Program-made: the position numbers and the translations under genes
Source: Clostridium sp. OF03-18AA
GTDB taxonomy: Bacteria; Bacillota; Clostridia; Lachnospirales; Lachnospiraceae
Direction: 5' to 3'
Assembly (NCBI RefSeq): GCF_003478035.1
Contig: NZ_QUEP01000006.1
Location: 124,001-188,000 of the forward strand
DNA length: 64,000 bases
The notes under the pieces: model-generated
Seen by the model: the letters and a program-made list of their open reading frames with translations, nothing else
Told to the model about the DNA's origin: nothing
Database searches by the model: none
Shown here: in pieces, positions 39,400 to 47,205 of the stretch
How the letters are laid out: each line of letters starts with the position of its first letter
How positions within the stretch are numbered: the stretch's first letter is position 1

Positions 39400-39428
39400 T
39401 TGACAGATGCAGAGAAGTGTGCTAATCT
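39400..39428 (+). promoter_or_regulatory. Promoter of the T-box operon
   Basis: Perfect TTGACA (39400-39405), a 17-base spacer and TAATCT (39423-39428); transcription should start near 39435, just before Stem I. Confidence 0.75.
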
Positions 39429-39434
39429 TGGAAC

Positions 39435-39840
39435 CATAAAAATTAAAAACAAAAAGTCGATGAGCAAAGAGAGTACATTCGGAATGAAATCACAGAGAGC
39501 TGTCGGTGGTGGAAGACAGTATGGAGTTCCTTATGGAATGGGTTTGTGAGACGCCAGGTGAAAGAGGTTCGAGTAGCTGAGGCCGTGATTCCTGCGTTAA
39601 GGGATAAGAGTATCGAAAGAGATTTCCGTACTCTGAAACGAGACAGATTGGTGGCAGATATTCCGATGTGGGATAGCTGCTTTTTTGTTCTAAAGGATCG
39701 GATCGTCAAGGCAGGTGCAGATTAAGAATCGCTGTGGGCAATGACAGCCGGCTTTCAGAATGATCCAGGATCTGTAAAATCGGGTGGCACCACGAAAAAT
39801 TTCGTCCCGGCATAGTGAGAACTATGTCCGGGATTTTTTG
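39435..39840 (+). promoter_or_regulatory. T-box riboswitch leader, predicted to sense uncharged tRNA-Trp
   Basis: Stem I contains the AGTA motif (39472-39475), the distal loop hairpin ctgtc-ggtggtggaa-gacag (39500-39519) and a specifier loop read as GAA-TGG (39536-39541), so the specifier is UGG for Trp. The T-box motif GGGTGGCACCACG is at 39782-39794; its UGGC would pair with GCCA, fitting a tRNA with discriminator G such as tRNA-Trp. The terminator tcccggcatagt/actatgtccggga (39805-39833) is followed by six T. Uncharged tRNA-Trp should stabilise the antiterminator and switch on the downstream genes. The T-box class is certain; the Trp assignment rests on my hand fold and on trpBA in the operon. 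Confidence 0.9.
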
Positions 39841-39908
39841 TTTCAAAAAAAGCCCCACCTTACTTATCCCTGCAGGAAGCAGTCGACAAAAACGAGGAGG
39901 AAATGATT

Positions 39909-45176: not shown

Positions 45177-45245
45177 TCAGAACGCAAAAAATGATCGACA
45201 AAGTCGATCTGAAACAATATCAGGCTACAAGAGGAGGAAACATCT

Positions 45246-46430
45246 ATGTCAAAAGGCAGATTTGGCGCACATGGCGGTCAGTATATTCCTGAGACGCTTA
45301 TGAATGCGGTATTGGAACTCGAAGAGGCATACAACCATTACAAAAATGACCCGGAATTCCAGAAAGAACTTACAATACTTTTAAATGAGTACGCAGGCAG
45401 ACCGTCAAGACTCTACTATGCGGAGCACATGACAAAGGATCTCGGCGGAGCAAAGATCTATTTAAAGAGAGAAGATCTGAATCACACCGGCGCCCACAAG
45501 ATCAACAACGTACTCGGTCAGGTCCTTCTCGCGAAGAAGATGGGAAAGACCCGTGTCATCGCAGAGACCGGAGCCGGTCAGCACGGCGTGGCGACAGCGA
45601 CGGCGGCGGCGCTCTTTGGCATGGAGTGCGAGATCTACATGGGCGTGGAGGATACGAAGCGACAGGCGCTCAATGTATACAAGATGCGCCTTCTCGGAGC
45701 AAAAGTCCATGCGGTGACGACAGGAACCGGCACATTAAAGGATGCTGTTTCCGAGGCGATGAGAGAGTGGACGAACCGGATCGAGGACACCCATTACGTT
45801 CTCGGCTCCTGCATGGGACCGCACCCGTTCCCGACGATCGTCCGTGATTTCCAGGCAGTTATCTCCAAGGAGATCAAGGAGCAGATGTTAGAGAAAGAGG
45901 GACGTCTTCCGGACGCAGTTCTCGCCTGTGTCGGCGGCGGATCCAACGCTATCGGCGCATTCTACAACTTCATCGAGGATAAGGACGTTCAGCTTATCGG
46001 CTGCGAGGCAGCAGGACGCGGCGTGAACACAGCAGAGACAGCGGCGACCATCGCTACAGGACGTCTCGGAATCTTCCACGGAATGAAGTCCTACTTCTGC
46101 CAGGATGAATATGGCCAGATCGCCCCGGTATATTCCATCTCCGCAGGTCTTGACTATCCGGGAATCGGACCGGAACACGCAAATCTTTACGATACAGGAC
46201 GGGCCCAATATGTGGCAGTTACCGATGATGAGGCGGTCGATGCATTCGAGTATCTCTCCAGAATCGAGGGAATCATCCCGGCGATCGAGAGCGCTCATGC
46301 CATCGCATACGCAATGAAGCTTGCACCGACGATGGGAAAGGATAAGATCATTGTCGTCAATGTTTCCGGAAGAGGAGACAAGGACTGTGCAGCAATCGCA
46401 AGATACAGAGGGGAGGATATTCATGAGTAA
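45246..46430 (+). CDS. trpB: Tryptophan synthase beta subunit
   Basis: A protein of 394 residues of the canonical TrpB1 type. GRFGAHGGQYIPETLMNAV is the N-terminus, HTGAHKINNVLGQ holds the PLP Schiff-base Lys85, ETGAGQHGVATATAAALFG includes the catalytic Glu, and GGGSNAIGAFY binds the PLP phosphate. It condenses indole with serine to give tryptophan in complex with TrpA. It has a strong ribosome site (aggagg). The gap to the kinase contains only a short hairpin without a T run, so it is read as the fifth gene of the T-box operon. None of trpEGDCF is present in the window. Confidence 0.96.
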   Translation: MSKGRFGAHGGQYIPETLMNAVLELEEAYNHYKNDPEFQKELTILLNEYAGRPSRLYYAEHMTKDLGGAKIYLKREDLNHTGAHKINNVLGQVLLAKKMGKTRVIAETGAGQHGVATATAAALFGMECEIYMGVEDTKRQALNVYKMRLLGAKVHAVTTGTGTLKDAVSEAMREWTNRIEDTHYVLGSCMGPHPFPTIVRDFQAVISKEIKEQMLEKEGRLPDAVLACVGGGSNAIGAFYNFIEDKDVQLIGCEAAGRGVNTAETAATIATGRLGIFHGMKSYFCQDEYGQIAPVYSISAGLDYPGIGPEHANLYDTGRAQYVAVTDDEAVDAFEYLSRIEGIIPAIESAHAIAYAMKLAPTMGKDKIIVVNVSGRGDKDCAAIARYRGEDIHE

Positions 46431-47205
46431 GATCGCAAACGCCTTCAAAGGCGGAAATGGAAAGGCATTTATCCCGTTTATCACCTGCGGTGACCCGTCC
46501 TTAGAGGTCACGGAGCAGCTTGTATATGCAATGGAGGAGGCAGGCGCAAACCTCATCGAGCTTGGAATTCCGTTCTCCGATCCGACGGCAGAGGGACCGG
46601 TGATTCAGGCGGCCAATACCCGCGCTCTGTCCGGCGGCGTGACCACCGACAAAATTTTTGCAATGGTTGAAAGAATTCGGAAAAACACACAAATTCCGAT
46701 GGTTTTCATGACGTACGCGAATGTTGTATTCTCCTACGGAACCGAGCGTTTCATCAAGAAGGCGTCCGAGCTTGGCATGGATGGATTGATCCTGCCGGAT
46801 GTGCCGTATGAGGAGAAAGAAGAGTTTGATTCGGTATGCAAAAAGTACGATATGGATCTGATCTCCCTCATCGCACCGACCTCCCACGAGCGCATCAGCA
46901 TGATCGCGAAAGAGGCATCCGGCTTTGTATACTGCGTATCTTCGCTCGGCGTTACCGGAACGAGAAGCGAGATCACAACGGATATCGGCGCGATGGTGAA
47001 GCTCGTGAAAAAGGCGAAAGATATCCCGTGTGCGGTCGGCTTCGGAATCTCCACACCGGAGCAGGCAAAGAAGATGGCAGGTCTCTCCGACGGAGCTATC
47101 GTTGGTTCCGCGATCGTGAAGCTCTGCGGAACGTATGGAAAAGACGCGGTTCCGTATGTGAAGGAATATGTGAAGTCGATGTGTGACGCGGTGCATGGGA
47201 TCTAA
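46423..47205 (+). CDS. trpA: Tryptophan synthase alpha subunit, catalytic Asp replaced by Glu
   Basis: A protein of 260 residues, a TIM barrel. FIPFITCGDPSLEVTEQL, NLIELGIPFSDPTAEGPVIQ, MTYANVVFSYGTERF, and the active-site loop SSLGVTGTRSE are diagnostic, as is the phosphate-binding VGFGISTPEQ. The enzyme splits indole-3-glycerol phosphate into indole and glyceraldehyde 3-phosphate. The catalytic Glu is Glu46. The second catalytic residue, Asp60 of the enteric enzyme (PLADGP), corresponds to Glu57 (PTAEGP) here. ATG at 46423 overlaps the end of trpB by eight bases, with ggggagg inside trpB, so the subunits are translationally coupled. Confidence 0.95.
   Translation: MSKIANAFKGGNGKAFIPFITCGDPSLEVTEQLVYAMEEAGANLIELGIPFSDPTAEGPVIQAANTRALSGGVTTDKIFAMVERIRKNTQIPMVFMTYANVVFSYGTERFIKKASELGMDGLILPDVPYEEKEEFDSVCKKYDMDLISLIAPTSHERISMIAKEASGFVYCVSSLGVTGTRSEITTDIGAMVKLVKKAKDIPCAVGFGISTPEQAKKMAGLSDGAIVGSAIVKLCGTYGKDAVPYVKEYVKSMCDAVHGI

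What the first reader, a model, noticed from the sequence alone, without database searches (positions are those of the whole stretch)
39400..47205. Trp T-box operon joining a sugar-type ABC importer, an FGGY kinase and trpBA: candidate indole-3-glycerol salvage pathway
The sequence shows one co-directional cluster after a T-box with Trp features: RbsB-, RbsA- and RbsC-like genes, an FGGY kinase, trpB and trpA, with tight spacing and no internal terminator seen. Established: TrpA needs indole-3-glycerol phosphate; FGGY kinases phosphorylate terminal hydroxyls of polyols and ketoses; RbsABC-type systems import such molecules. No trpEGDCF is present here. Inference: the cell imports indole-3-glycerol (or a close indole polyol), the kinase makes indole-3-glycerol phosphate, and TrpAB converts it to tryptophan, all induced by tryptophan starvation. 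I know of no described pathway of this kind. Alternatives are import of an anthranilate ribose derivative, of tryptophan itself, or an unrelated sugar system that happens to share the leader.
Basis: partly seen in the sequence, partly recalled or inferred. Interest (0 to 1): 0.95.

Follow-up and report, generated by a model that had tools for sequence, protein, structure and literature searches.

The report
Predicted indole-glycerol salvage operon for tryptophan
A bacterial operon with a tryptophan-type T-box leader joins a sugar-type importer, a sugar-kinase-like enzyme and tryptophan synthase, and is predicted to make tryptophan from scavenged indole-3-glycerol, a nutrient route that our paper searches did not find described.

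Summary
In detail: a Trp T-box (39451-39812; specifier UGG, motif UGGC), then RbsB-, RbsA- and RbsC-like genes, an FGGY kinase, trpB and trpA. It is conserved: two other genomes carry the same leader type and six genes with different neighbours, and neither has TrpC, TrpF or TrpE. Unexpectedly, four more distant relatives carry the same importer and kinase without T-box or trpB beside them, but with a second TrpA lineage between permease and kinase. So 7 of the 8 loci of this kinase clade seen in context adjoin a TrpA-family gene (the eighth is a broken kinase), against 0 of 61 other FGGY loci. In one 391-genome sample, kinase and second TrpA lineage were found in the same three genomes. The window's binding protein is 57-66% identical to the four distant ones, and its pocket is remodelled alike in all seven. 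Best reading: import of indole-3-glycerol, phosphorylation to indole-3-glycerol phosphate, then TrpBA (tryptophan) or, in the second type, a stand-alone TrpA-like lyase (indole plus triose phosphate). Substrate and reactions are inferred; nothing was assayed, and the window's own genome is not held. I found no published description in an open-licence library.

The parts
39451..39841 (+). Trp T-box leader with two expression platforms; specifier UGG 39539-39541
   Evidence: RF00230 98.3 bits for 39451-39812; leader conserved in G275 and G404
39647..39686 (+). first platform: AUUGG-UGGC...CCGAU antiterminator-like helix overlapping a terminator-like hairpin with U run
   Evidence: AUUGG, UGGC and CCGAU identical in all 3 leaders; hairpins fold in all 3, z -2.2, -2.7, -2.9
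39780..39840 (+). second platform: GGGUGGCACCACG T-box and terminator hairpin
   Evidence: hairpins in all 3, z -4.0, -5.7, -3.6
39903..40937 (+). RbsB-like substrate-binding lipoprotein, proposed indole-3-glycerol binder
   Evidence: PF13407 150.2 bits; pocket comparison with E. coli RbsB
41071..42732 (+). RbsA-like ATPase with two ABC domains
42729..43661 (+). RbsC-like permease
   Evidence: PF02653; RbsC model 188.1 bits, below its cut-off of 398
43665..45176 (+). FGGY kinase, proposed indole-3-glycerol kinase
   Evidence: PF00370/PF02782; TIGR01312 XylB 313.9 bits, under its cut-off of 380.25; in one clade (100/100) with the TrpA-linked kinases and the broken one of G949
45246..46430 (+). 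trpB, tryptophan synthase beta
   Evidence: TIGR00263 648.6 bits, cut-off 392.45; HKIN, GAGQHG, GGGSNA strings present
46423..47205 (+). trpA, tryptophan synthase alpha, overlapping trpB
   Evidence: TIGR00262 283.9 bits, cut-off 102.35; Glu49 kept, Glu at the Asp60 place as in 4 of 10 canonical-branch TrpA sampled from other genomes
47421..47450 (+). terminator-like hairpin after the operon, poor T tail
   Evidence: consensus match only

Best explanation
This operon likely lets a bacterium without the early tryptophan genes make tryptophan from a scavenged precursor: the RbsABC-type importer would take up free indole-3-glycerol, the FGGY kinase would phosphorylate its terminal hydroxyl to indole-3-glycerol phosphate, and TrpBA would convert that with serine to tryptophan, all predicted to be switched on by uncharged tRNA-Trp through the T-box. 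Shown: the genes, their order, the Trp T-box, its recurrence, no match for TrpC, TrpF and TrpE in the two sister genomes, and the coupling of this importer and kinase to two different TrpA lineages. Inferred: the substrate, the kinase reaction, induction by tryptophan starvation, and the lack of the early genes in the window's own genome, which is not held. In the second operon type the TrpA-like protein would act alone, releasing indole and glyceraldehyde 3-phosphate, under a regulator that resembles DeoR of Bacillus and LsrR.
For: Same kind of leader and six genes in G275 and G404 with different flanks. These two genomes show no TrpC, TrpF or TrpE; the control genomes ring 14 of 14 each time. 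Four relatives (G001, G002, G734, G533) have regulator-SBP-ATPase-permease-TrpA-like-kinase, TrpA-like and kinase overlapping or within 9 bases. All 4 TrpA-like copies keep the residues matching Glu49 and Asp60, the GFGI loop and the phosphate-site Gly (catalytic roles recalled). The TrpA-like lineage is a branch apart (100/100), while the window's TrpA sits on the canonical side, which suggests that TrpA partners joined this kinase twice. In the class sample of 391 genomes, the kinase (E <= 1e-150) and the TrpA-like protein (E <= 1e-138, next 4.9e-36) were each found in the same 3. Of 61 other FGGY loci at 33% identity or less, none has a TrpA at E <= 1e-4 in the DNA held. Database lists (best 120 each) share longest-contig lengths far above control: kinase with TrpA-like 15, control mean 0.45, maximum 3. 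Binding-protein pocket alike in all 7: positions matching RbsB Asp89, Arg141, Asp215 and Gln235 kept, Phe15/Phe16 to Thr, Arg90 to Ser, Asn190 to Trp (the list of ribose contacts is recalled).
Against: No biochemistry. Free indole-3-glycerol as an environmental nutrient is not documented by any search. The window's own genome is not held, and completeness of the relatives is not told. Absence of TrpC alone is common: 114 of 295 genomes in the order have no match. G403, in the genus of G275, has neither the kinase nor TrpC, TrpF or TrpE, so loss of the early genes there is not tied to this system. G002 has a complete trp operon besides its type II cluster, so salvage for auxotrophy cannot be the only use. 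G533 has one TrpE-type domain match, perhaps PabB. G949 carries a broken kinase of the same clade without importer or TrpA near, and has TrpC. Type II loci show no Trp T-box, so the Trp link of the substrate rests on type I. The TrpA-like enzyme could cleave another aryl-glycerol phosphate. In the contig-length test 55 of 85 TrpA-like clusters with long enough contigs share no length with the other two (capped) lists.
Confidence: 0.62

Rival explanations
1. The importer and kinase handle a related indole or aryl polyol (for example a ring-substituted indole-glycerol or a hydroxyphenyl-glycerol), and the TrpA proteins cleave its phosphate; free indole-3-glycerol itself is not the main substrate.
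For: The TrpA-like lineage is only about 25% identical to the window's TrpA and could have another leaving group; the binding pocket is remodelled but its ligand is unknown.
Against: In type I the same importer and kinase lie with canonical TrpA and TrpB behind a Trp T-box, and canonical TrpA is known for indole-3-glycerol phosphate (established knowledge).
Confidence: 0.16
2. TrpBA salvages free indole (TrpB acting on indole from neighbours), and importer plus kinase serve an unrelated sugar that happens to share the leader.
For: Organisms with only TrpAB are reported in the human gut and read as users of indole precursors (PMC9026213, passages); a TrpB2-like protein appears to use indole from neighbouring cells (PMC11535334, passages); the kinase profile is closest in the PDB to 3hz6, named xylulokinase.
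Against: The coupling to TrpA homologues occurs in two different arrangements; the kinase misses the xylulokinase cut-off; no sugar isomerase or epimerase was seen inside the 7 intact operons on reading the ORF lists.
Confidence: 0.12
3. The importer takes up tryptophan itself, as the T-box-controlled TrpXYZ system is reported to do, and the kinase is incidental.
For: A T-box-controlled tryptophan uptake system is reported (PMC9382623, search listing and start of abstract only).
Against: The binding protein is Peripla_BP_4, not the family of TrpX as I recall it (PF04392), and no such match appears; in all 7 intact operons the kinase lies within 69 bases of the next gene of the importer-TrpA set; type II has no trpB in the DNA held.
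Confidence: 0.05
4. The cell imports 1-(2-carboxyphenylamino)-1-deoxyribulose, the kinase makes its phosphate, and TrpC closes the indole ring.
For: FGGY kinases act on ketopentose-like ends (established knowledge); the best NCBIfam model is xylulokinase.
Against: TrpC is not found in 5 of the 6 carrier genomes tested, so the product would be a dead end there.
Confidence: 0.05

Closest known systems
Indole salvage by TrpAB-only bacteria (variant A1 in PMC9026213)
   Same: trpBA kept without trpCDEFG; tryptophan made from an outside precursor
   Different: Here a dedicated importer and a kinase lie in the operon, and the predicted precursor is indole-3-glycerol, not indole; the PMC9026213 passages seen do not mention such an importer or kinase
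T-box-controlled tryptophan uptake, TrpX/TrpXYZ (PMC9382623, listing and start of abstract only)
   Same: ABC importer behind a Trp T-box
   Different: Other binding-protein family (recalled), no kinase that I know of, imports the amino acid
Ribose/xylose-type (CUT2) importer plus sugar kinase operons
   Same: RbsABC-type genes followed by a kinase; import then phosphorylation
   Different: No sugar isomerase or epimerase seen in the operon, Trp T-box, TrpA-type aldolase, remodelled binding pocket
Stand-alone indole-3-glycerol phosphate lyases (maize BX1, 1tjr)
   Same: TrpA fold proposed to act without TrpB, releasing indole (type II)
   Different: The type II protein of L002 shows no special closeness to BX1: 58.3 bits, below 15 other TrpA-type chains; function untested

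Membership tests
T-box leader specific for tRNA-Trp | match to RF00230 over the curated score | tested here: met
   window 98.3 bits, cut-off 93; the two sister leaders score 87.7 and 83.4, under the cut-off, E 8.5e-18 and 1.1e-16
T-box leader specific for tRNA-Trp | UGG specifier and UGGC T-box, conserved | tested here: met
   identical in all three leaders; that G73 is the Trp discriminator is recalled
Tryptophan synthase alpha/beta | TIGR00262 and TIGR00263 over cut-off, catalytic residues | tested here: met
   Glu stands at the Asp60 place of TrpA, as in 4 of 10 canonical-branch TrpA sampled
Xylulokinase (TIGR01312) | score over the equivalog cut-off | tested here: not met
   313.9 bits, cut-off 380.25
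Ribose-binding protein RbsB | equivalog score over cut-off and ribose-contact residues | tested here: not met
   90.2 bits, cut-off 337; 10 of 15 recalled contact positions differ in the window protein
TrpXYZ tryptophan importer | TrpX-type binding protein family (recalled as PF04392) | tested here: not met
   only Peripla_BP families match
FGGY kinase family | FGGY_N and FGGY_C domains | tested here: met
Indole-3-glycerol salvage pathway (proposed) | binding, phosphorylation and growth on indole-3-glycerol | not testable with these tools
   needs enzymology and genetics

The most novel reading that the evidence does not exclude
Free indole-3-glycerol is a shared nutrient in anaerobic communities, with its own importer and kinase family. 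One branch uses it to make tryptophan under a double-gated Trp T-box; the other, with a second TrpA lineage turned into a stand-alone lyase, eats its triose and releases indole.
Probability: 0.5. Interest if true: 0.92.

Novelty: new variant of a known kind. Interest (0 to 1): 0.83.

Why it matters
If true, tryptophan auxotrophy calls for bacteria with trpBA only would need revision, and indole-3-glycerol would join indole and anthranilate as a traded tryptophan precursor. It would give a function to a large kinase and binding-protein family whose members carry names such as xylulokinase and ribose transport protein, and to a TrpA lineage named tryptophan synthase alpha chain (names seen). It also gives a directly testable new source of free indole in anaerobic communities.

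Tried and rejected
Own-genome searches failed because no genome is held. A T-box in type II leaders was sought and not found at the operons: gathering scan of L002 and L003, permissive scans of L002 and of L003, L073 and L074. The weak T-box in L073 (1-232, 57.6 bits, below the cut-off) lies 4 kb upstream, before a gene I read as prolyl-tRNA synthetase (no family call); L074 holds only 456 bases before its regulator gene. TPP riboswitches beside four kinases of about 33% identity lie on the other strand and were dropped. The reading that the kinase is xylulokinase was rejected by cut-off and context. The protein P0020, which joins a SufC-like ATPase to the kinase (my reading), looks like an assembly chimera and was not used. 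G001, G533 and G734 have no TrpA-family match at E <= 1e-6 other than the TrpA-like one. Genome searches score only the best few candidates per genome, and draw part of large groups, so counts of carriers are lower bounds.
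Full report
Observation. The window holds one T-box at 39451-39812 (98.3 bits, cut-off 93) followed by six co-directional genes: RbsB-, RbsA- and RbsC-like, an FGGY kinase, trpB and trpA. Gene gaps are 133, -4, 3, 69 and -8 bases. The specifier codon is UGG and the T-box motif UGGC. 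E. coli TrpC/F, TrpD/G and TrpE find nothing in the window at E <= 1e-10. No whole genome is held for the window.

Recurrence of the operon (type I). The kinase was sought in whole genomes: 1 of 397 in the family of a locus titled Lachnospiraceae bacterium, and 2 of 3 in the genus of that hit. Both hits, G275 and G404, carry the complete set in the same order; against the window, binding protein 84-86%, kinase 61-62%, TrpB 86-90% and TrpA 81-86% identical. On reading the ORF lists, their neighbours differ from the window's and from each other's. Both have a T-box in front, under the curated cut-off but at E 8.5e-18 and 1.1e-16, with the same specifier and T-box sequence. Kinase and trpB are 13 and 8 bases apart there, tighter than the 69 bases in the window.

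Missing early pathway. TrpC was found in 0 of 3 genomes of that genus, TrpF in 1 of 7 genomes tested and TrpE in 2 of 7; the positives are G002 for TrpC, TrpF and TrpE, and G533 for the TrpE-type domain only. Among the six genomes with an intact system, TrpC is present only in G002. The control set rang 14 of 14 each time. In a sample of the order, 181 of 295 genomes match TrpC, 176 over the cut-off, so absence alone is common. G403, in the same genus but without the kinase, also lacks the three, so loss of the early genes is not by itself tied to this system. What is telling is TrpA kept without TrpC beside this importer and kinase. Completeness of the genomes is not told.

A second arrangement (type II). 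L002/G001, L003/G002, L073/G734 and L074/G533 carry a regulator, then binding protein, ATPase, permease, a TrpA-family protein and the kinase, with no trpB match in the DNA held. The regulator of L002 resembles Bacillus DeoR (211 bits) and LsrR (114 bits), both below their cut-offs, and the other three are 51-70% identical to it. TrpA-like and kinase overlap or lie within 9 bases. The binding proteins are 57-66% identical to the window's over full length and 60-71% in the aligned core, although the kinases share only 45-52%. That points to a shared ligand. The TrpA-like proteins keep the residues matching Glu49 and Asp60 of E. coli TrpA (catalytic roles recalled), the GFGI loop and the phosphate-site glycine. 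The copy tested passes the TIGR00262 trpA cut-off narrowly (L073, 108.3 against 102.35). They form a branch apart (100/100) while the window's TrpA lies on the canonical side (the root is drawn at the midpoint). Glutamate at position 60, as in type I, occurs in 4 of the 10 canonical-branch TrpA sampled from other genomes.

Specificity of the association. Eight members of the kinase clade were seen in context (one clade, 100/100): seven adjoin a TrpA-family gene; the eighth, in G949, is broken and has neither importer nor TrpA near. None of the 61 other FGGY loci from the scan has a TrpA at E <= 1e-4 in the DNA held; some of these contigs are short. In a class sample of 391 genomes the kinase was found in G001, G533 and G734 (E <= 1e-150), and a profile of the TrpA-like lineage scored E <= 1e-138 in these three only, the next match being 4.9e-36. 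These three have no other TrpA-family match at E <= 1e-6. In the protein database, lists of kinase, TrpA-like and binding-protein clusters share exact longest-contig lengths of 2500 or more in 15 (kinase with TrpA-like), 14 (kinase with binding protein) and 18 cases (TrpA-like with binding protein), against control means of 0.40-0.46 and maxima of 3-4 over 120 offsets. This uses the best 120 of 881, 241 and 1068 proteins; 30 of 85 TrpA-like clusters with long enough contigs are matched. Equal length is taken as the same contig, which is an inference.

Binding pocket. Aligned with E. coli RbsB, positions of Asp89, Ser103, Arg141, Asp215 and Gln235 are kept in 7 of 7; Phe15 and Phe16 are Thr, Asn13 and Arg90 are Ser, Asn64 is Val, Ile132 is His and Asn190 is Trp in 7 of 7; Phe164 is Gln or Gly and Phe214 Val or Ile. 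The list of contacts is recalled. Anchors for a polyol are kept while the ribose sandwich is gone and an aromatic residue is gained; that fits an aryl-polyol but does not prove it.

Mechanism. TrpA acts on indole-3-glycerol phosphate (established). The FGGY family phosphorylates hydroxyls of polyols and ketoses (established). The simplest substrate that makes sense of importer, kinase, two TrpA partners and a Trp T-box is free indole-3-glycerol. In type I the product would be tryptophan; in type II indole plus glyceraldehyde 3-phosphate. That indole-3-glycerol is excreted by some trp mutants is recalled, not from a call. All catalytic steps are inferred.

Leader. After one specifier stem come two units, each with UGGC and a terminator-like hairpin: AUUGG-UGGC...CCGAU with a hairpin and U run at 39647-39686, and the canonical unit at 39780-39840. 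Both are present in all three leaders. The first hairpin folds in all three with changed bases, z -2.2, -2.7 and -2.9; the second z -4.0, -5.7 and -3.6. Tandem complete Trp T-boxes are described (PMC12452182, passages); a single specifier with two gates was not found, a narrow search.

Literature. PMC9026213 (passages) reports 14 gut strains with TrpAB only and gives indole precursors as their need. PMC2494555 (passages) covers T-box-regulated transporters; the words sugar and ribose occur 0 times in its main text. PMC9382623 was seen as a listing with the start of its abstract. Searches found 0 papers. The library holds open-licence papers only, so absence in print is not proven.

Noticed in passing
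window 39647-39840; L067 2055-2225; L068 13520-13655 (- strand): Trp T-box leader with one specifier stem and two antiterminator/terminator units in series, conserved in three genomes
   Followed up: partly
L077 11695-13032 (G949): Broken kinase of the same clade, stops inside, no importer or TrpA match near; by eye beside a glycyl-radical enzyme and a transaldolase-like gene
   Followed up: partly
window 35178-39022 (-) and 49555-55253 (+): Peptide/nickel-type ABC transporter genes on both sides of the operon (by eye; only 51453-52436 was tested, Opp2B/NikB-like), with a LacI-family regulator at 48406-49392 and a DUF554 protein at 47555-48280
   Followed up: no
window 4380-5519: Putative nickel-pincer-nucleotide-dependent ornithine cyclodeaminase variant (NF052526, 626.6 bits, cut-off 440)
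   Followed up: no
window 57067-58881: Protein with an esterase domain resembling PHB depolymerase in its second half, both models below their cut-offs
   Followed up: no
L004, L005, L025, L032: FGGY kinases about 32-33% identical to the window's lie about 1 kb from TPP riboswitches on the opposite strand
   Followed up: no
P0311, P0278, P0120, P0198: Named members: Bacilliculturomica massiliensis (binding protein), Sinanaerobacter chloroacetimidivorans (binding protein and kinase), Anaerotruncus sp. DFI.9.16 (TrpA-like protein), useful for experiments
   Followed up: no
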